Source: a virus | Length of the DNA stretch: 26,767 nucleotides | Strand: one strand, 5' to 3' | Virus record (IMG/VR): IMGVR_UViG_3300037847_003687 | Span: 1 to 26,767 of that record | Shown: piece by piece, positions 9,063 through 23,194 of the stretch | How the letters are laid out: every line of letters begins with the position of its first letter | Position numbering within the stretch: position 1 is the stretch's first letter | Notes under the pieces: model-generated | What the model was told of the DNA's origin: nothing | Database searches by the model: none | What the model saw: only the letters and a program-made list of their open reading frames with translations | Position numbers and translations under genes: made by a program

Positions 9063-9379
9063 ACATAGATCAAAGATTATATTATGAATCACAATTTAAT
9101 TTAATCGGCCACACATTATGTAAATATTTTGAAGAATTAAAAGCAGATGATCCTAAAAGAAAACAGTTAGGATCTATGATGAGATGCCTTACTGATATGT
9201 ACACTTTTACAAATTCTTTATTAATTCAAGATATGCATAAAACCAAAAGGCTACAAAGATTAATTAATGATTACAACAAAGACACACAACAATTAAATAA
9301 CAAAATAAATGAACTCAATACAACTATTAGATTCAACAACTTGGAAAAAAGCAGATTTGCTGACCAAGATGATGAGTGA
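9059..9379 (+). CDS. Helical protein, unknown function
   Basis: 106 residues, start overlapping the upstream stop (ATGA). Several amphipathic helices (YESQFNLIGHTLCKYFEELK; QLGSMMRCLTDMYTFTNSLL) and a C-terminal coiled coil (RLINDYNKDTQQLNNKINEL). No motif is recognised. It sits between two nuclease genes, and its stop overlaps the start of the RecB-like gene. Confidence 0.55.
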   Translation: MNIDQRLYYESQFNLIGHTLCKYFEELKADDPKRKQLGSMMRCLTDMYTFTNSLLIQDMHKTKRLQRLINDYNKDTQQLNNKINELNTTIRFNNLEKSRFADQDDE

Positions 9380-10115
9380 TGATTTTTACTACAACTATTT
9401 AGGCAAGGCAGCATTAAGCAGCTCAATTGTAAAAAAACTATTGAAAAGCCCTAAAAGTTATTATTATACAATGAAGTACGGCAACCCTATGACTTCGGCC
9501 TTGAGAATGGGCAGGCTTTTGCATCAATCAATATTAGAGCCACACCTATTTGAAAAGTACACTTTTGTAGAATGCAAATCAAGAACGGCCAAAGTATTTA
9601 GAGATACCATAAAAGAAAACGAAGGCAATGAACATACAATATTTACTGCCAAAGAAAAATCAGAAACCGAAAGATTGCAAGATGCGTTGTTGAAAAACGA
9701 AACAGCATTAAACTTGCTAAGTGATTCAGAGTTTGAGGTACCAGCTATTGATATGATTCAGGGCATTCCATTTCGTGCAAAAGCGGATATTATAGGAGAA
9801 AATAAAATGGTAGATATAAAAACTACTTCTTCGATTGATAACTTTGTAAATAAAAGATCACAGTTTAGTGCATATGCTTTCGACTATGATATACAAGTTT
9901 ACATTTATTGTGAGCTTTTTGGCAGATCATTTCATCAATTTAGTTTTCTTGTAATAGACAAACAAACACTTGACATTGGTATATTTAAAGTAAGCGAGGA
10001 ATTTTATTTAAGTGGTATGCAAAAAACATTTCAAGCAATTGAAAGGTACAAACAATTTTTTGACAATGGTAACGAAATAGATTTAGATAGTTATACAATT
10101 AATGGAATATTATGA
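9369..10115 (+). CDS. RecB/Cas4-type PD-(D/E)XK exonuclease (RecE-like)
   Basis: 248 residues from the ATG-ATG at 9369 (overlaps the upstream stop at 9377-9379); an upstream in-frame ATG at 9309 would overlap far more. The motifs are in order: SALRMGRLLHQSILEP with the conserved G-x-x-x-H (~48-52), FRAKADII (catalytic Asp), NKMVDIKTTSS (D-x-K), and YDIQVYIYCEL, the Q-x-x-x-Y of RecB-family exonucleases. Such phage enzymes chew 5' ends to give 3' tails for annealing. No annealing protein of Beta/Erf/RecT type is recognised, unless the OB-like protein at 5967 serves this role. Confidence 0.75.
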   Translation: MMSDDFYYNYLGKAALSSSIVKKLLKSPKSYYYTMKYGNPMTSALRMGRLLHQSILEPHLFEKYTFVECKSRTAKVFRDTIKENEGNEHTIFTAKEKSETERLQDALLKNETALNLLSDSEFEVPAIDMIQGIPFRAKADIIGENKMVDIKTTSSIDNFVNKRSQFSAYAFDYDIQVYIYCELFGRSFHQFSFLVIDKQTLDIGIFKVSEEFYLSGMQKTFQAIERYKQFFDNGNEIDLDSYTINGIL

Positions 10116-10819
10116 TACCAAAAAAAATACATCAAATCTTTTGGAACATACAAGGCAAAGAATTAGATGAGATTCCTTTGTTTCTTCAAAGTATAAAATC
10201 AATCAAAGAAAAAAATCCTGATACTGAACATATTTTATGGAGCAAAACAGACTGCAAAAAACTTATCGAAAATAAACTACCTGAATATCTAAACTTTTAT
10301 AATGAGATGAGATATGATATACAAAGATTAGATTTTATGAGAGCAGCAATATTATACTGCGAGGGCGGAATATATGTTGATCTTGATTTAGTATGTTTAA
10401 AAAATATTGATAAATTATTTACATATAAATTTTTTATTCATAGTTTGCGACATATAAAACCAAAACTAACCGAATATGTAAATAATGATTTAATGGCATC
10501 AAACAAAGGTTTTAGGTTTTGGAAGATATTAATGGATGAATCAAAGGAAAATTATGAAGATAAAATGAAAATAGAAGTTTATCAAACTTGGAAAGCAAGG
10601 TTTGTTTTGCAAACAACAGGCCCAAGATTTGTAGGCAGAATATTAAAAAAAGTATTTCCGCATTACAAACCACCCTATCTTGTTTATATGGATACGGAAA
10701 ATTCTTTGCAAAAAGAATGGCAAGGAAAAAATTTATTACAGAGCAAAAAAGATTACTATTTTGAAAACTATATCAGCGGTAGCTGGTTAAATACAATTAA
10801 AGATGATAAAGAAAGTTAA
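10112..10819 (+). CDS. DXD glycosyltransferase (GT32 / OCH1-like)
   Basis: 235 residues, start overlapping the nuclease stop (ATGA). It opens with the family signature IPKKIHQIFW and has RLDFMRAAILYCEGGIYVDLDL (residues ~72-93), the Gly_transf_sug core with the D90-x-D92 metal-binding pair and the E-G-G-I-Y-V-D motif. It would move a sugar from a nucleotide-sugar donor. In a phage operon that also carries a TET/JBP-like oxygenase and a second glycosyltransferase, the acceptor is probably modified phage DNA. Cell-surface glycans or a phage protein are the alternatives. Family assignment is firm; acceptor is inference. Confidence 0.8.
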   Translation: MIPKKIHQIFWNIQGKELDEIPLFLQSIKSIKEKNPDTEHILWSKTDCKKLIENKLPEYLNFYNEMRYDIQRLDFMRAAILYCEGGIYVDLDLVCLKNIDKLFTYKFFIHSLRHIKPKLTEYVNNDLMASNKGFRFWKILMDESKENYEDKMKIEVYQTWKARFVLQTTGPRFVGRILKKVFPHYKPPYLVYMDTENSLQKEWQGKNLLQSKKDYYFENYISGSWLNTIKDDKES

Positions 10820-11381
10820 AATATCAGAAGTTAAAAAAAATCCTGCTAATCCAAGATTGATCAAGGATTACAAATACAGCAAACTTGTCAAAAGCCTAAA
10901 AGACTTTCCGCAAATGTTGGAACTCAGGCCAATTGTTGTGGATAAAGATATGGTTATTCTAGGTGGCAATATGAGATATAGAGCAAGTGTTGATGCTGGA
11001 TTGAATGAAGTATGGATAAAAATTGCAGACAACCTAACCGAAAAACAAAAAAAAGAATTTATAATCAAAGATAACACTAGCTTTGGTGAATGGGACTGGG
11101 ATCTTTTAGCAAACGAATGGAACCCAGGCCAAATTAATGACTGGGGTTTGGATCTGCCAAAGGTTTATTTTGAAGATGAGGAAGAACCACAGCTTGACAA
11201 AGATATATTTGATCACGAGTTAGATACATATATCAACGCAAAAATAAAACAGATTACCTTATTTTTTAATTCAGAGGAATATGAAAAGGCAGTTAAAGAT
11301 TTAGAAACAATAAGGCAAAAGGAAAGCCTTACGGACAACACACAGGTATTTAAATTTTTGATTGATAAATATGGATTATAA
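10803..11381 (+). CDS. ParB-like nuclease-domain protein
   Basis: 192 residues. The first ~75 residues match the ParB/sulfiredoxin domain: KKNPANPRLI, SLKDFPQMLELRPIVV, then VILGGNMRYRASVDAGLNEV with the conserved G-G-N-M-R-x-x-A. The C-terminal half (IIKDNTSFGEWDWDLLANEW, acidic DEEEPQLDKD, final helix) is usual for phage members of this group, which often sit beside DNA methylases or base-modifying enzymes. It may bind, nick or hydrolyse nucleotide, or guide the modifying enzymes to DNA. It lies between the two glycosyltransferases and overlaps both. Confidence 0.8.
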   Translation: MIKKVKISEVKKNPANPRLIKDYKYSKLVKSLKDFPQMLELRPIVVDKDMVILGGNMRYRASVDAGLNEVWIKIADNLTEKQKKEFIIKDNTSFGEWDWDLLANEWNPGQINDWGLDLPKVYFEDEEEPQLDKDIFDHELDTYINAKIKQITLFFNSEEYEKAVKDLETIRQKESLTDNTQVFKFLIDKYGL

Positions 11382-12114
11382 AATTGCAATACCATCTTAT
11401 AAAAGATCTGAAACAATTAAAAATAAAACTTTAAAATTGTTAGATGAATATGGTATTGATAAAGAACGCATTACAATATTTGTAGCAAACAAACAAGAAG
11501 AAAGCATTTATAAAGATAGCCTACAAGATAAATATAAAATTGTAGTAGGCGTAGCAACAATTGGAAGGCAAAGAAACTTTATAGAAAAATATTATGCAGA
11601 GGGCACAAGATTGATGATGTTTGATGATGATATAGAAAAGGTACAAAGAAAGGTAAAAGCAAAACTTGTTGATGTAGTTGATTTAGAAAAAGAAGTTTTT
11701 TACAAGGGCTTTGAAACTTGCGAAATGATAAATGCAAAAACGTTTGGAATATATGCAGCATCAAATCCATATTTTATGAAAAACAGAATATATACAAAAA
11801 TTTGTTATATAATAGCAAGTATGTTTGGAGTTATCGTTGAACACGATCCTTTTTTAGAAAGGGTTACAAATCACGGTGAAGATTATGAATATAGCATTAG
11901 GCAGTATATTAAAAACAAAAAGCTAGTTAGATTAGATTACCTAACAGTGAAGTCAAACTATTATAAAGAACAGGGTGGGCTACAAGAAATAAGAACAAAG
12001 CAGTATGTATATGATTCAATATATCAGATACAAAGTATGTTTCCAGAATTTTGTCAGATGTATATAAGAAAATCAACAGGAAACGCAGAATTAAGATTAA
12101 AAGATACACGATGA
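11371..12114 (+). CDS. TET-associated-type glycosyltransferase (GT-A fold)
   Basis: 247 residues from the ATG at 11371; the upstream TTG at 11362 adds only three residues. The start YKIAIPSYKRSETIKNKTLK is typical of the glycosyltransferases found beside phage TET/JBP enzymes. It continues with VGVATIGRQRNFIEKYYAEG and the metal-binding LMMFDDDIEKV (D85-D87). The C-terminal half has HDPFLERVTNHGEDYEYSIR, a plausible catalytic acidic/His segment. Known relatives put sugar on 5-hydroxymethylcytosine in phage DNA. Its stop overlaps the start of the dioxygenase gene (ATGA), strongly linking the two. Confidence 0.75.
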   Translation: MDYKIAIPSYKRSETIKNKTLKLLDEYGIDKERITIFVANKQEESIYKDSLQDKYKIVVGVATIGRQRNFIEKYYAEGTRLMMFDDDIEKVQRKVKAKLVDVVDLEKEVFYKGFETCEMINAKTFGIYAASNPYFMKNRIYTKICYIIASMFGVIVEHDPFLERVTNHGEDYEYSIRQYIKNKKLVRLDYLTVKSNYYKEQGGLQEIRTKQYVYDSIYQIQSMFPEFCQMYIRKSTGNAELRLKDTR

Positions 12115-12992
12115 AAAGAATAGATGTAGAAAGAAAAGAAATAAATAAAAAAGATTACATTAGAAGAACTGCTAGATTAAGTGATGTGTCAAGGCATATA
12201 AAAGAAGATGCAATTGTATATCATAATGGAAAGCCTATATTATTATACAAAGTATTATCAACACCGCCAAAAGATGTTAGATGGGCAGTAAAAAATATTA
12301 ATTATCAAAAACGTAAAAGAACACACGGACTACAGAACACAAGTGCGGTTTTCGGATATAATCCAAGGCAAGAAAAATCACAAGACTTCTGCTCCGCATC
12401 AGCTATGGGATACGATCAACCAAAGCAACATTACATAATTACCAACTTTGCTAAACAAATACAAAAATATTATAAAGATTACTTCCAAGAAACTTACAAA
12501 CAACACAAAGAAAAAGTAAAAGAGAAAGTAAAAGATCAATGGGTAATTAAAGATACAGTATTCACTAGTGGCATAGTAAACAAAAACAACCAACTAAAAT
12601 ACCATTTCGATAGTGGCAATTTTAAAAATGTATATAGCAATATGCTTGTATTTAAAAGTGATGTGATGGGTGGGCATTTAGTTATTCCAGAAATAGATAT
12701 ATCATTAGAGGTTGCTGACAATAGCGTTACTATTTTTGATGGCCAAGATCTTTTGCACGGAGTTAGTCCAATTGATTACAACAATTCAAAAGCATATAGA
12801 TATAGTATTGTTTATTATTCTTTGGAACGAATGTGGCAATGTTTGACGATTGAAGAGGAAGTAGATCGAATTAGAGAGAAAAAAATGATTAGAGAAGAAA
12901 ACAGATTGAAGCCAGAACACCTTGATATTTTGCAACAAAGAAAAAAACAAGCCCAAAAATATAAACAAACAATTGAGAATGAACAAAAGTGA
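12111..12992 (+). CDS. TET/JBP-like 2-oxoglutarate/Fe(II) DNA dioxygenase
   Basis: 293 residues from ATG 12111, coupled to the glycosyltransferase stop; upstream TTG at 12051 would overlap 64 bases. The core shows FTSGIVNKNNQLKYHFDSGN with the iron ligands H165-x-D167, then SNMLVFKSDVMGGHLVIPE, FDGQDLLHGVSP with the distal iron ligand H216, and AYRYSIVYY with R230 to bind 2-oxoglutarate. The region THGLQNTSAVFGYNPRQ and QDFCSASAMG upstream is shared with phage members of the TET/JBP family as I know it. The enzyme would oxidise the methyl group of 5-methylcytosine or thymine in DNA. The C-terminal ~45 residues are a charged helix. The 3' end overlaps the terminase small subunit gene. Confidence 0.85.
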   Translation: MKRIDVERKEINKKDYIRRTARLSDVSRHIKEDAIVYHNGKPILLYKVLSTPPKDVRWAVKNINYQKRKRTHGLQNTSAVFGYNPRQEKSQDFCSASAMGYDQPKQHYIITNFAKQIQKYYKDYFQETYKQHKEKVKEKVKDQWVIKDTVFTSGIVNKNNQLKYHFDSGNFKNVYSNMLVFKSDVMGGHLVIPEIDISLEVADNSVTIFDGQDLLHGVSPIDYNNSKAYRYSIVYYSLERMWQCLTIEEEVDRIREKKMIREENRLKPEHLDILQQRKKQAQKYKQTIENEQK

Positions 12993-13338
12993 ACATATAA
13001 AAAAGGCATTAATTGAAGCATTAGAAAAATCATTAGGTATTGTAACTACTGCGTGTAAAAAAGTAGGCATTGGAAGAACTACCTTTTATAATTATTACAA
13101 TGATGATTCAGAATTTAAAGCACAAGTAGATGATATAGCTAATATGAGTTTGGACTTTGCCGAAAGCAAACTTCTTGAACAAATAAAAGACAATTCAACA
13201 GCAGCCACTATATTTTATTTAAAAACAAAAGGCAAGAAAAGGGGTTATGTGGAAAGGCAAGAGATCACTGGTGCTGATGGTGTGCCGACAAATGTAAAAA
13301 TAGAAATAATTAAAAATGCAGATAAGCCTAAAAACTAA
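12979..13338 (+). CDS. Terminase small subunit
   Basis: 119 residues from ATG 12979, 14 bases inside the dioxygenase gene. The N-terminal helix-turn-helix (SLGIVTTACKKVGIGRTTFY, then NYYNDDSEFKAQVDDI) is the DNA-binding form used by small terminases of the phBC6A51 type. It is followed by SLDFAESKLLEQIKDNSTAA, then IFYLKTKGKKRGYVERQE, a segment seen in this family. It binds the packaging start site and loads the large subunit, encoded next with a 23-base overlap. The position right before the large terminase makes the call secure. Confidence 0.85.
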   Translation: MNKSEHIKKALIEALEKSLGIVTTACKKVGIGRTTFYNYYNDDSEFKAQVDDIANMSLDFAESKLLEQIKDNSTAATIFYLKTKGKKRGYVERQEITGADGVPTNVKIEIIKNADKPKN

Positions 13339-14473
13339 TATTGTATTTGAGCATTTAATAAACAGCCAAAAAAAAATAATAGTCAACCAAGGTGGAACCA
13401 GATCAGGAAAAACATACAACATTATACTATTTATTATTTTCTATTATTGTCTGCGTAATAATGGCAAGACTATTACTATTTGTCGTAAAACTTTTCCAGC
13501 ATTAAGGGCAACTGTACTACGTGATTTTATAAACATACTTAGAGAACACGATTTATATTCAGAGGATAAACACAACAAATCAAGCAGCGAATATAACTTA
13601 TTTGGCAACCTAGTTGAATTTATCTCATTAGATCAACCTGTAAAAGTAAGAGGAAGAAAGCGTGACTTGTTGTTTATTAACGAAGCCAACGAATTATACT
13701 GGGAAGATTGGCAGCAATTATTATTTAGAACAAGCGAAAAGATAATACTTGATTACAACCCAAGTGAAGAATACCACTGGATATATGACAAAATAATACC
13801 AAGAGAAGATACAGACTTTCTAAAAACCACATACAAAGACAACCCATTTTTAGAAGAAGCATTAATTAAAGAAATTGAAAGGCTACAATATACAGATGAA
13901 CAATACTGGCAAATATATGGGCTTGGTGAAAAGGGAATAAGCAAAGCCACAATATTTAATTACGTGGAATGTAATCAGATACCAGAAGATGCCGAGTTTG
14001 TTTCTATGGGTATGGACTTTGGCTTTACAAACGATCCTACGGCATTAGTATCTGTGTGGAAGAAAGAATCAAATTTATATATAAAAGAATTATTATATAG
14101 AACAATGATGACAACAGGCGACATACATAGCTATTTTAAGCAAACAATCACAAATGAATTAATATACGCTGATAGTAGTGAACCAAGAATAATTGAAGAA
14201 TTAAGGCGTATGGGTTGGAAGATCCGTGCAAGTTTGAAAGGCAGAGATAGTGTAAACGCAGGTATTGATTTATTGAAAAGGTTTAAGATCCATATACACA
14301 AAGATAGTGCCAACGCCATTCAGGAATTCAGAAATTATAAATGGAAAGAGGATAAAACAGGCAAGCTAACCAACACCCCAGAAGATAAAAACAATCACAT
14401 AACAGATGCAGTAAGATATGCAACATATTCAATATTAAGTAAACCGAACTTTGGTAGGTACGCAATTCAATAA
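13316..14473 (+). CDS. Terminase large subunit (Terminase_3/PBSX type)
   Basis: 385 residues. The ATPase half has Walker A NQGGTRSGKTY (26-33), Walker B DLLFINEANEL with catalytic E123, and the coupling motif ILDYNPSEEY (~144-153). The nuclease half has MGMDFGFTNDPTALV (D234), IYADSSEP (D286) and HITDAVRYATYS, the three acidic sites of the RNase-H-like fold. The slightly short length fits the family. It pumps DNA into proheads and cuts concatemers. If DNA is glycosylated, its nuclease must tolerate the modified base. Confidence 0.95.
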   Translation: MQISLKTNIVFEHLINSQKKIIVNQGGTRSGKTYNIILFIIFYYCLRNNGKTITICRKTFPALRATVLRDFINILREHDLYSEDKHNKSSSEYNLFGNLVEFISLDQPVKVRGRKRDLLFINEANELYWEDWQQLLFRTSEKIILDYNPSEEYHWIYDKIIPREDTDFLKTTYKDNPFLEEALIKEIERLQYTDEQYWQIYGLGEKGISKATIFNYVECNQIPEDAEFVSMGMDFGFTNDPTALVSVWKKESNLYIKELLYRTMMTTGDIHSYFKQTITNELIYADSSEPRIIEELRRMGWKIRASLKGRDSVNAGIDLLKRFKIHIHKDSANAIQEFRNYKWKEDKTGKLTNTPEDKNNHITDAVRYATYSILSKPNFGRYAIQ

Positions 14474-20942: not shown

Positions 20943-21086
20943 ATGATTAATGATATATTACAATTATTGGAATACGCAAAGGGTGAAACTGAAAACATAA
21001 GGATCGCACAAGGTAAATACAGACTACCTAATACTTTTAAAGAGGGCTACACACAATTAAAAAAAGAAATTAAATGGAAAAAGTAA
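20943..21086 (+). CDS. 47-residue micro-protein before the tape measure
   Basis: INDILQLLEYAKGETENIRI then AQGKYRLPNTFKEGYTQLKK. A helix, a short turn and a charged end. The start is one base past the upstream stop; the 3' end overlaps the tape-measure gene by 13 bases, so it is likely translated as part of the operon. Function unknown. Confidence 0.5.
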   Translation: MINDILQLLEYAKGETENIRIAQGKYRLPNTFKEGYTQLKKEIKWKK

Positions 21087-23194
21087 TTGATGTAAAAGTA
21101 AATATAGAACAAGCAAAAAAGAACTTTAATGAAGTAAACGAAAGTATTCAATTACAAGAGAAGTTTGTTTCTGATTTAAGATTGAAGATAGCTGATCTAG
21201 AGTTTGAAATGACGAAAATGAATGGCACTCAAAAGATGATGGCCGAACAAACCCTTAAACAATTTAATGCAGAATTAAAGGTTGAGACAGCTGCATTAAG
21301 AGCATTAAAAGTAGAATCATCTCAATACAATAAAGTACTTCAAACACAAAGCAAAAGAACACAAGTAGGTAGGGTAAAAGCACTTGAATTTAATGAAACA
21401 CTTTTAAAAAATAGAGATATACAATCTGGTTTAAATACTATTACTGGCGGTTTGTCTGGCCAAATTGTAAAATTTACTAAACTATTTGTTTCGGCATCAA
21501 AAGGAATCAAACTTGCAGGTATATCTTTAAATTTATTTAAAAAAACACTTATAGCAACAGGTATTGGTTCAATAGTAGTTTTGGTTGGTTTACTTGTAGC
21601 AAATTTTGGTAAATTAAAAGATGCAGTAAATGGTGTTTCAAGAGAACAGGCAAATAATTTGGAGCTTGCAAAAAACACAGTAGCAGAAGAAGAATCAAGA
21701 TTAAATATTACAAACAGCCAAGATGAAACATTAAAAAGACAAGGCAAATCAGAAAAGGAAATACTTAAACTAAAAATAAATCAAACTAATGAAGTAATTG
21801 AAGCACTTAAAATTCAATTAGAACAAGAAAAACAATTAAAAGCATCACAAGTAGCAGCAGCAGAAAGAAACCAAAAAATATTAGCTGGTGTTATAGGGGT
21901 TATTACTGCACCAGTAACTATAATACTAGGAATGATTGATGCTGTAACAGCACTTGCTTCTAAAGTACCAGGCTTAGCCATTGAAGCAACGAGCTTTGCA
22001 GCAGACTTTACTATGGGCGCAGCATCATTTGTGTTTGATCCTGAAGAAGTTGCTGATGAGGGTGATGCAGTGATTGAAGAAACTGAAAAAAAACTAACCC
22101 AACTTACAAATACAAGAGATGGCTACTTGAATAGCATTGACGAAATGAATGAGGAATCAAGTGAAAAAACAGTTAAAGATGAAGAAAATAAACAAAAGAA
22201 GATAGATAATATTATAAACAACTTTCAAAAACAAAGAGAAGATAAAGAAGCAAAAACAAACGCAGAAAAAGTTGATTTACAAAAGAAAAGAGCAATAGCA
22301 GAACTGAAAGCACTTGGTGCAACTAAAGAAGAAATAGAAAAAGTAGAAGAGCACTTTGCAAATTTAAGAAAGGAAGCAGTTGAAAAAGATCAAGAGAAGA
22401 TAAACAACATAATGGATAGGTATGCTACTCAACTCGCAGACAGAGAAGCAGAAACTCACCAAGCGAAAATGTTACTTCGTCAAGAAAGAGCAATTGAAGA
22501 AGCTAAATTAGCAGGTGCAAGCGCAGCACAAATTGCAGAAATAGAAATGTTTTATAGTGGTTTAATAGCTGATGCAATAATTAAAGATAATCAAGCAATA
22601 ACAAAAGCAGAACAAGAAGAATCAGCAGCAAGGTTGGCTTTAAAAATGCAGGCGTTGGATAGTGCAATATCAATTGCAAATGAAGAAAGTGCAGTGGGTA
22701 GGGCATTAATTGTAGCTAAACAAATATTACTTGCAAAAGAAGCAGTTTTAAATTTTAAAAAGAATTTAATAAATGCAACTTCAGCTATGAGTGGTGTAAC
22801 AATCACTGCAAGTGAAGCAGCAACACAAACAACTGCATCTATTGCAAAAGCTGCAAATGTAGCACCGCCACCATTGAACTTACCATTTATAGCAACGGCT
22901 TTGGCAACCGCAGCAAGTGTAATGTCGGCAGTAAAAGCAGCAGTTGATGCAACAAAAGGAGCAGCGAGTAAAGCTGGTGCAGGGGGTGGTGGCACAAGTG
23001 CAAGATTAGGTACACCGCAAATAGCAACACAAGCACCATCATTTAATATAGTAGGTGCATCAGCAGAAAATCAATTAGCACAAACAATAGCAGATCAAAC
23101 GCAGCAGCCTGTACAAGCCTATGTGGTTGCAAATGATGTAACAACTGCACAAGGGCTAGAAAGAAATATAATACAAGAAAGCAGCTTAGGATAA
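21074..23194 (+). CDS. Tape measure protein
   Basis: 706 residues. Long N-terminal coiled coil (residues 1-120), hydrophobic segment with LIATGIGSIVVLVGLLVANF (~157-176), a second with VIGVITAPVTIILGMIDAVT (~275-295), a charged helical middle and an Ala-rich C-terminus (ATALATAASVMSAVKAAVDA) that ends QAYVVANDVTTAQGLERNII. The coiled coil plus membrane-active parts are typical of tape measures, which set tail length and may line the ejection channel. The length of ~700 residues predicts a tail of about 100 nm under the usual 0.15 nm/residue rule. Two related helical units are visible: ELKALGATKEEIEKVEEHFA and EAKLAGASAAQIAEIEMFY. Confidence 0.85.
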   Translation: MEKVIDVKVNIEQAKKNFNEVNESIQLQEKFVSDLRLKIADLEFEMTKMNGTQKMMAEQTLKQFNAELKVETAALRALKVESSQYNKVLQTQSKRTQVGRVKALEFNETLLKNRDIQSGLNTITGGLSGQIVKFTKLFVSASKGIKLAGISLNLFKKTLIATGIGSIVVLVGLLVANFGKLKDAVNGVSREQANNLELAKNTVAEEESRLNITNSQDETLKRQGKSEKEILKLKINQTNEVIEALKIQLEQEKQLKASQVAAAERNQKILAGVIGVITAPVTIILGMIDAVTALASKVPGLAIEATSFAADFTMGAASFVFDPEEVADEGDAVIEETEKKLTQLTNTRDGYLNSIDEMNEESSEKTVKDEENKQKKIDNIINNFQKQREDKEAKTNAEKVDLQKKRAIAELKALGATKEEIEKVEEHFANLRKEAVEKDQEKINNIMDRYATQLADREAETHQAKMLLRQERAIEEAKLAGASAAQIAEIEMFYSGLIADAIIKDNQAITKAEQEESAARLALKMQALDSAISIANEESAVGRALIVAKQILLAKEAVLNFKKNLINATSAMSGVTITASEAATQTTASIAKAANVAPPPLNLPFIATALATAASVMSAVKAAVDATKGAASKAGAGGGGTSARLGTPQIATQAPSFNIVGASAENQLAQTIADQTQQPVQAYVVANDVTTAQGLERNIIQESSLG

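What the first reader, a model, noticed from the sequence alone, without database searches (positions are those of the whole stretch)
10112..12992. DNA-hypermodification cassette: two glycosyltransferases, ParB-like protein and TET/JBP-like dioxygenase
Seen: four overlapping genes on one strand with DXD glycosyltransferase, ParB-domain, TET-associated-type glycosyltransferase and a 2OG-Fe(II) dioxygenase with H165-x-D167, H216, R230. Known: TET/JBP enzymes oxidise the methyl group of pyrimidines in DNA, and phage relatives pass it to glycosyltransferases. Inference: this phage puts sugar on its own DNA before packaging. Terminase genes follow at once.
Basis: partly seen in the sequence, partly recalled or inferred. 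Interest (0 to 1): 0.88.

Follow-up and report, generated by a model that had tools for sequence, protein, structure and literature searches.

The report
Phage DNA-sugar-coating gene cassette
A small virus of aquatic bacteria carries a compact set of genes that very probably oxidises the methyl group of bases in its own DNA, most likely thymine, and then attaches sugars there, which would hide the DNA from bacterial defences and would be a viral counterpart of the "base J" known from trypanosomes.

Summary
10112-12992 is an operon of overlapping genes: GT1 (Gly_transf_sug), ParB-like protein, TAGT (PF20691), TET/JBP dioxygenase (PF12851), then TerS-TerL. The dioxygenase model (pLDDT 91.9) is closest to TET2, NgTet1, CMD1 and CcTet (Z 17-20); H165/D167/H216/R230 are invariant. 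TAGT is a GT-A fold with a DDD motif. Linkage is not chance: 71/72 TAGT loci have TET within 1.2 kb, 48/48 TET loci have ParB upstream, 50/51 have TerL downstream, 52/57 close GT1 relatives sit beside TET/TAGT.

A C5-methyltransferase is absent from the record, from three apparently complete ~33-kb relatives and from 112 of 119 related records. TETs beside 5hmU-pathway genes (ADDT, kinase) are scattered through the TET tree among TAGT-linked ones. Cultured phages Wooper and Tonitrus have ParB-TET-ADDT-kinase without C5-MTase or thymidylate synthase. The product is therefore probably a hexosyl-5-hydroxymethyluracil (base-J-like), with the sugar set by an exchangeable glycosyltransferase. A few TET loci with a nearby C5-MTase keep the cytosine route open. 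No chemistry was tested. It is a member of the known TET-TAGT class; base and sugar are the open points.

The parts
10112..10819 (+). GT1: glycosyltransferase of the Gly_transf_sug (DXD) family; probably adds or extends the sugar (inferred); accessory, absent from the three closest complete relatives
   Evidence: PF04488 1.7e-17; D90-L-D92 invariant; 52 of 57 close relatives lie beside TET/TAGT against 1 of 22 distant ones; region 10117-11044 does not align to G001-G003
10803..11381 (+). ParB/Srx-fold DNA-binding-type protein, constant partner of TET in this gene order; role (targeting or loading) inferred
   Evidence: PF02195 8.5e-6, phrog_620 9e-27; GGNMR motif invariant; upstream of TET in 48 of 48 testable loci
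11371..12114 (+). TAGT: TET-associated glycosyltransferase, GT-A fold, D85-D86-D87; predicted to attach sugar to the 5-hydroxymethyl base
   Evidence: PF20691 3e-16, phrog_842 1.1e-19; AF2 pLDDT 93.1, GT-A hits; 71 of 72 TAGT loci have TET within 1.2 kb
12111..12992 (+). TET/JBP-family 2OG-Fe(II) dioxygenase, predicted 5-methylpyrimidine (most likely thymine) hydroxylase; H165, D167, H216 iron ligands, R230 2OG
   Evidence: PF12851 2.5e-11; invariant residues; AF2 pLDDT 91.9; closest PDB TET2 Z 19.9, NgTet1 18.9, CMD1 18.5, CcTet 17.4
12982..13338 (+). terminase small subunit (neighbour; marks the conserved position of the cassette)
   Evidence: phrog_309 2e-6, phrog_4102 1e-5
13316..14473 (+). 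terminase large subunit (neighbour)
   Evidence: PF04466 3.8e-21, PF17288 3.8e-20

Best explanation
The four genes form a post-replicative DNA hypermodification cassette. The TET/JBP dioxygenase hydroxylates the methyl group of thymine in the phage's double-stranded DNA to 5-hydroxymethyluracil; the ParB-like protein helps it find or load on DNA; TAGT links a hexose from a nucleotide sugar to the new hydroxyl group, giving a base-J-like hexosyl-5hmU; GT1 adds a second sugar or an alternative one. The sugar coat would block restriction enzymes and other sequence-reading defences. Shown here: gene families, active-site residues, folds, operon and its conservation, absence of a 5mC source. Inferred: the thymine substrate, the order of steps, the roles of ParB and GT1, the sugar, the protective function.
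For: Families and residues. Folds: TET2/NgTet1/CMD1/CcTet rank above all other 2OG oxygenases for the 12111 model; TAGT model matches GT-A enzymes. Linkage: TAGT-TET 71/72, ParB upstream 48/48, TerL downstream 50/51, GT1 52/57. Thymine: no PF00145 in the window record; no PF00145 in three relatives whose contig ends overlap or are circularly permuted, i.e. apparently complete; C5-MTase over cut-off in only 7 of 119 related records, none among 9 complete cultured phages; no thymidylate synthase/hydroxymethylase in 50 of 50. The same ParB-TET pair is followed by ADDT (amino acid:DNA transferase) and a P-loop kinase, the genes of thymidine hypermodification, in 12 of 12 ADDT loci and in cultured phages Wooper and Tonitrus, which lack both C5-MTase and thymidylate synthase, so TET is the only visible source of 5hmU there. 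ADDT-linked TETs are scattered among TAGT-linked ones (11 changes, at least 5 forced by strongly supported branches). The ADDT proteins are distant homologues of one in phage phi_M6; phage M6 carries a 5hmdU-derived base (PMC6449724).
Against: No chemistry, expression or DNA-modification data. A C5-MTase-like gene lies directly downstream of TET in L028-L030 and near TET in L276, L321 and L334, so a cytosine route exists at least as an option. The characterised phage TETs act on 5mC (Burke et al. 2021, own knowledge, paper not held). A few ParB-TAGT loci have no recognised TET. ADDT and kinase specificity for 5hmU in these phages is itself inferred by homology, partly weak (L066 kinase 0.006). 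The window record lacks about 6 kb of the genome.
Confidence: 0.75

Rival explanations
1. Cytosine route: the TET acts on 5-methylcytosine made by a host (or missed) C5-methyltransferase, and TAGT/GT1 glycosylate the resulting 5hmC, as in the characterised phage TET clusters and T6.
For: C5-MTase next to or near TET in L028-L030, L276, L321 and L334. T6 TAGT works on glucosyl-hmC DNA (PMC13216743). Phage TETs known to me act on Gp5mC (Burke et al. 2021, own knowledge).
Against: No C5-MTase in the window, in three apparently complete relatives, in 9 complete cultured relatives or in 112 of 119 related records; a host enzyme would have to be present and matched every time. The same TET clade serves 5hmU-type pathways.
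Confidence: 0.17
2. The glycosyltransferases modify host surface sugars or proteins (superinfection exclusion), and only TET acts on DNA.
For: GT1's distant relatives lie elsewhere, without TET; phage glycosyltransferases can alter O-antigen.
Against: TAGT and close GT1 relatives are tied to TET/ParB beside terminase genes in unrelated phages, and TAGT homologues in T6-like phages act on DNA (PMC13216743, PMC13390438).
Confidence: 0.05
3. The cassette is a relic or works in a few phages only, without real DNA modification here.
For: No expression data; GT1 and the 5' part of ParB are a recent insertion or swap.
Against: All four frames are open, catalytic residues intact, overlaps preserved, TET 91-92% identical in close relatives.
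Confidence: 0.03

Closest known systems
Phage TET-TAGT DNA hypermodification clusters (PF12851 + PF20691; predicted by Iyer/Aravind, phage 5mC-TETs of Burke et al. 2021, own knowledge)
   Same: TET/JBP dioxygenase beside a TET-associated glycosyltransferase in a phage
   Different: No cytosine C5-methyltransferase in the window or its complete relatives; constant ParB partner and terminase neighbours
Cultured phages Acadian (Mycobacterium) and Prairie (Arthrobacter)
   Same: ParB, TET and TAGT together; Acadian: ParB-TET-TAGT-PIG-L-TerS-TerL
   Different: TET about 30% identical; TAGT after TET; extra PIG-L deacetylase, no GT1
Thymidine hypermodification systems (M6, ViI, phi W-14; annotated in Wooper and Tonitrus)
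   Same: In Wooper/Tonitrus the same ParB-TET pair beside terminase genes (PMC11955845)
   Different: Window has glycosyltransferases in place of ADDT and 5hmU kinase; M6/ViI make 5hmdU as a monomer before polymerisation (own knowledge)
Base J pathway of kinetoplastids (JBP1/2 + JGT)
   Same: Logic: thymine hydroxylation in DNA, then glucosylation
   Different: Glycosyltransferase family differs (TAGT against JGT, not compared here); J-binding domain not looked for; glucosylated 5hmdU had not been reported in phages as of 2019 (PMC6449724)
T6 beta-glucosyl-HMC-alpha-glucosyltransferase (TAGT)
   Same: PF20691/phrog_842, GT-A fold (PMC13216743)
   Different: T6 TAGT adds a second glucose to glucosyl-hmC; here TAGT probably adds the first sugar, with no alpha-GT/beta-GT seen

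Membership tests
TET/JBP dioxygenases (PF12851) | profile match above curated cut-off | tested here: met
   43.5 bits against 34.9
TET/JBP dioxygenases (PF12851) | HxD...H iron triad and 2OG-binding Arg | tested here: met
   H165, D167, H216, R230 invariant in 24 and 38 homologues
TET/JBP dioxygenases (PF12851) | TET-type double-stranded beta-helix fold | tested here: met
   TET2 Z 19.9 rmsd 4.0 over 253 residues, NgTet1 18.9, CMD1 18.5, CcTet 17.4; next best other 2OG oxygenase 15.2
TET/JBP dioxygenases (PF12851) | oxidises 5-methylpyrimidine in DNA | not testable with these tools
   needs an enzyme assay
TAGT (PF20691) | profile match, GT-A fold, acidic metal-binding motif, TET neighbour | tested here: met
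   60.4 bits against 27.5; GT-A hits; D85-D86 invariant; TET adjacent
Gly_transf_sug glycosyltransferases (PF04488) | profile match with DXD | tested here: met
   64.3 bits against 23; D90-L-D92 invariant
ParB/Srx-fold proteins (PF02195) | profile match above cut-off | tested here: inconclusive
   26.2 bits against 26.3, but phrog ParB families to 9e-27
ParB chromosome/plasmid partition proteins | parA gene beside parB | tested here: inconclusive
   no gene of the neighbourhood scanned was named ParA; not every window gene was scanned
Phage cytosine TET clusters (Burke type) | co-encoded cytosine C5-methyltransferase | tested here: not met
   none in the window record or in three apparently complete relatives
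M6/ViI thymidine hypermodification | TS-type dUMP hydroxymethylase plus 5hmU kinase and ADDT | tested here: not met
   no PF00303 in relatives, no ADDT in G001-G003, no ADDT or kinase in the cassette
Base J-type pathway | substrate is thymine and product hexosyl-5hmU | tested here: inconclusive
   gene-content and tree evidence only

The most novel reading that the evidence does not exclude
The virion DNA carries base J or a disaccharide form of it (hexosyl-5-hydroxymethyluracil), made on the polymer by a JBP-type oxygenase; ParB-TET is a constant hub beside the terminase genes onto which phages plug exchangeable second-step enzymes (TAGT, other glycosyltransferases, or kinase plus amino acid:DNA transferase), so that the decoration changes while the hydroxylase stays.
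Probability: 0.5. Interest if true: 0.75.

Novelty: new member of a known kind. Interest (0 to 1): 0.55.

Why it matters
Phage TET/JBP enzymes are held to be the ancestors of the eukaryotic TET and JBP enzymes, and as far as I know the characterised phage ones act on 5-methylcytosine. The comparative pattern here predicts a large group of small aquatic phages and cultured actinophages whose TET/JBP hydroxylates thymine and whose sugar-adding gene is swapped quickly. If true, base J or a close kin exists in phages (not reported as of 2019, PMC6449724), and the prediction can be checked at once on cultured phages such as Acadian, KayaCho, Wooper and Nonlabens phage P12024L.

Tried and rejected
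Queuine tRNA-ribosyltransferase (phrog_6059 and RefSeq names of TET homologues): rejected, the protein has the TET fold and iron triad. Partition role for ParB: not supported; the same ParB family lies beside DNA-modification genes or is often a long (360-500 aa) protein next to TerS/TerL. Monomer-level route (TS-type hydroxymethylase): none in 50 of 50 related records. PDB sequence search with TAGT gave nothing, so its fold rests on the model. Single-sequence PDB search with TET gave nothing useful; the profile did. Burke 2021, Iyer 2013 and Lee 2022 are not held. Reading the base from the residue three after D167 (N170 here; N or D in relatives, mixed in both TAGT- and ADDT-linked sets) was tried and does not decide. 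The papers searched gave no modification data for Cr30.
Full report
What is there. The window is a 26,767-base virus record of IMG/VR type at about 30% GC. From 9309 to 14473 all genes run on + and overlap: exonuclease VIII-like (phrog_412 4.3e-32), GT1, ParB-like, TAGT, TET/JBP, TerS, TerL.

Structure. The AlphaFold2 model of the 12111 protein (38 sequences, pLDDT 91.9) matches NgTet1, CMD1, TET2 and CcTet first in Foldseek (E 3e-12 to 1e-10), and in VIA-align 2 the four known TET/JBP types take ranks 1-16 (Z 19.9-16.9) ahead of other 2OG oxygenases such as FTO and ALKBH3 (15.2 and lower). The A1 profile also finds TET2 (1.2e-5) and CMD1 (5e-4) by sequence. The TAGT model (pLDDT 93.1) matches GT-A glycosyltransferases, in line with the GT-A prediction for T6 TAGT (PMC13216743).

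Linkage. Related loci were fetched with TET, TAGT, GT1, ParB and ADDT queries. ParB lies upstream of TET in 48 of 48 loci with enough sequence, TerL downstream in 50 of 51, a TAGT-profile gene directly upstream in 42 of 48; 71 of 72 TAGT-query loci have TET within 1.2 kb, the exception being a contig cut at TAGT. TAGT at 65-75% identity is shared with large phages whose TET is only about 20-30% identical. GT1: of 57 close relatives (38% or more, and one partial), 52 lie beside TET/TAGT; of 22 distant ones, 1 does. So GT1 belongs to the pathway, although it is absent from the closest complete genomes.

Exchangeable second step. Among relatives with TET 91-92% identical, the TAGT slot holds a TAGT 93-97%, 75% or only 28% identical (L002-L008). 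In others it holds two further TAGT-like clusters (21 and 19 loci; PF20691 8.8e-6, below cut-off, and 9.2e-11), or a 301-aa gene without Pfam match (L051, L068; glycosyltransferase-like only by eye), and in L066, L067 and L069 an ADDT gene (PF18724), an FAD-oxidoreductase-like gene and a small P-loop protein. All 12 loci found with the ADDT query have TET, 11 ParB, 10 the kinase, 8 TerL.

Which base. 5mC needs a C5-methyltransferase. PF00145 is absent from the window and from G001-G003, three relatives of 33-34 kb. G001 and G003 have overlapping ends (101 bp at 99%, 220 bp at 97.7%), and the three begin at different points of one gene order, so they look complete. In all, 7 of 119 distinct related records have a C5-MTase above cut-off, none of the 9 complete cultured phages; 0 of 50 have a thymidylate synthase/hydroxymethylase. 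Wooper and Tonitrus have ParB-TET-ADDT-kinase (PF18724 1.4e-25 and PF18751 9e-59 in Wooper) with neither C5-MTase nor thymidylate synthase. Tonitrus's authors already call the set a thymidine hypermodification system (PMC11955845). Distant homologues of Wooper's ADDT lie in Pseudomonas phages including phi_M6; phage M6 is shown to carry a 5hmdU-derived base (PMC6449724). In a tree of 95 TETs, ADDT-linked TETs do not form a group: 11 changes, at least 5 forced by strongly supported branches, no more clustered than shuffled labels (quick tree, SH-aLRT only, several long branches). One oxidised intermediate shared by both outcomes is the simplest reading, and thymine is the methylated pyrimidine present in every genome.

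What speaks against. A C5-MTase-like gene sits directly downstream of TET in L028-L030, near TET in L276 and L321, and in the record of L334. The PF00145 match in L030 covers the N-terminal motifs with SPPC; such genes can also be carboxymethyltransferases (CmoX, often near ParBc proteins, PMC12783734), which was not tested here. The ADDT/kinase specificity in these phages rests on homology. Absence in fragments is weak evidence; absence in the apparently complete genomes is stronger.

Mechanism. Replicated phage DNA -> TET hydroxylates T to 5hmU -> TAGT adds the first sugar -> GT1 adds another (inferred). ParB probably guides or loads the enzymes: it is constant while second-step enzymes vary, and the same ParB family precedes other genes or occurs as a longer protein at the same place beside TerS/TerL. 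Sugar identity is unknown; Acadian and Prairie follow TAGT with a PIG-L/glucosaminyl deacetylase, hinting at GlcNAc there.

Novelty. TET-TAGT pairs in phages and ParB-TET sets in actinophages are known as gene associations. What is less settled, and argued here from gene content and a tree, is thymine as substrate, which would make the product base-J-like; glucosylated 5hmdU had not been reported in phages as of 2019 (PMC6449724). I file it as a new member of a known kind with an open, testable chemical question.

Noticed in passing
10117-11044: GT1 and the 5' part of the ParB gene do not align to three otherwise 83-94% identical relatives (G001-G003): a recent insertion or swap in this phage.
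   Followed up: partly
L066:1876-3930, L067, L069: In the TAGT slot between ParB and TET these relatives carry ADDT, an FAD-oxidoreductase-like gene and a P-loop protein, i.e. a thymidine-hypermodification set.
   Followed up: yes
L030:9119-9709 (also L028, L029): Small (about 198 aa) C5-MTase-like gene with SPPC between TET and TerS; could be a methylase or a CmoX-like enzyme.
   Followed up: partly
L279, L280, L286, L288, L310: ParB-TAGT next to terminase genes without a recognised TET; source of the hydroxyl group unknown.
   Followed up: no
L168:737-7210 (Caulobacter phage Cr30): TET, ADDT (1.3e-52) and a divergent TAGT (below cut-off) in one locus, followed by inositol-1-phosphate synthase; Cr30 also has a thymidylate synthase homologue.
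   Followed up: partly
L165:3517-7709 (Synechococcus phage S-CBWM1): TET homologue annotated as SNF2 repair protein, then TAGT, then sugar-nucleotide genes (glucose-1-phosphate thymidylyltransferase).
   Followed up: no
phrog_6059 and RefSeq mycobacteriophage gene 2: TET/JBP homologues are widely misnamed queuine tRNA-ribosyltransferase.
   Followed up: partly
21074-23194: Tape-measure gene is only about 57-62% identical to relatives whose flanking genes are about 90% identical: mosaic exchange.
   Followed up: no
L160:1381-2031; L084:8264-8911: N6/N4-type DNA methyltransferases come and go in relatives near the cassette.
   Followed up: no
L169:2594-4221: TAGT-TET pair (TET 49% identical) on a contig of an Ignavibacteria metagenome bin, probably a virus or prophage.
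   Followed up: no
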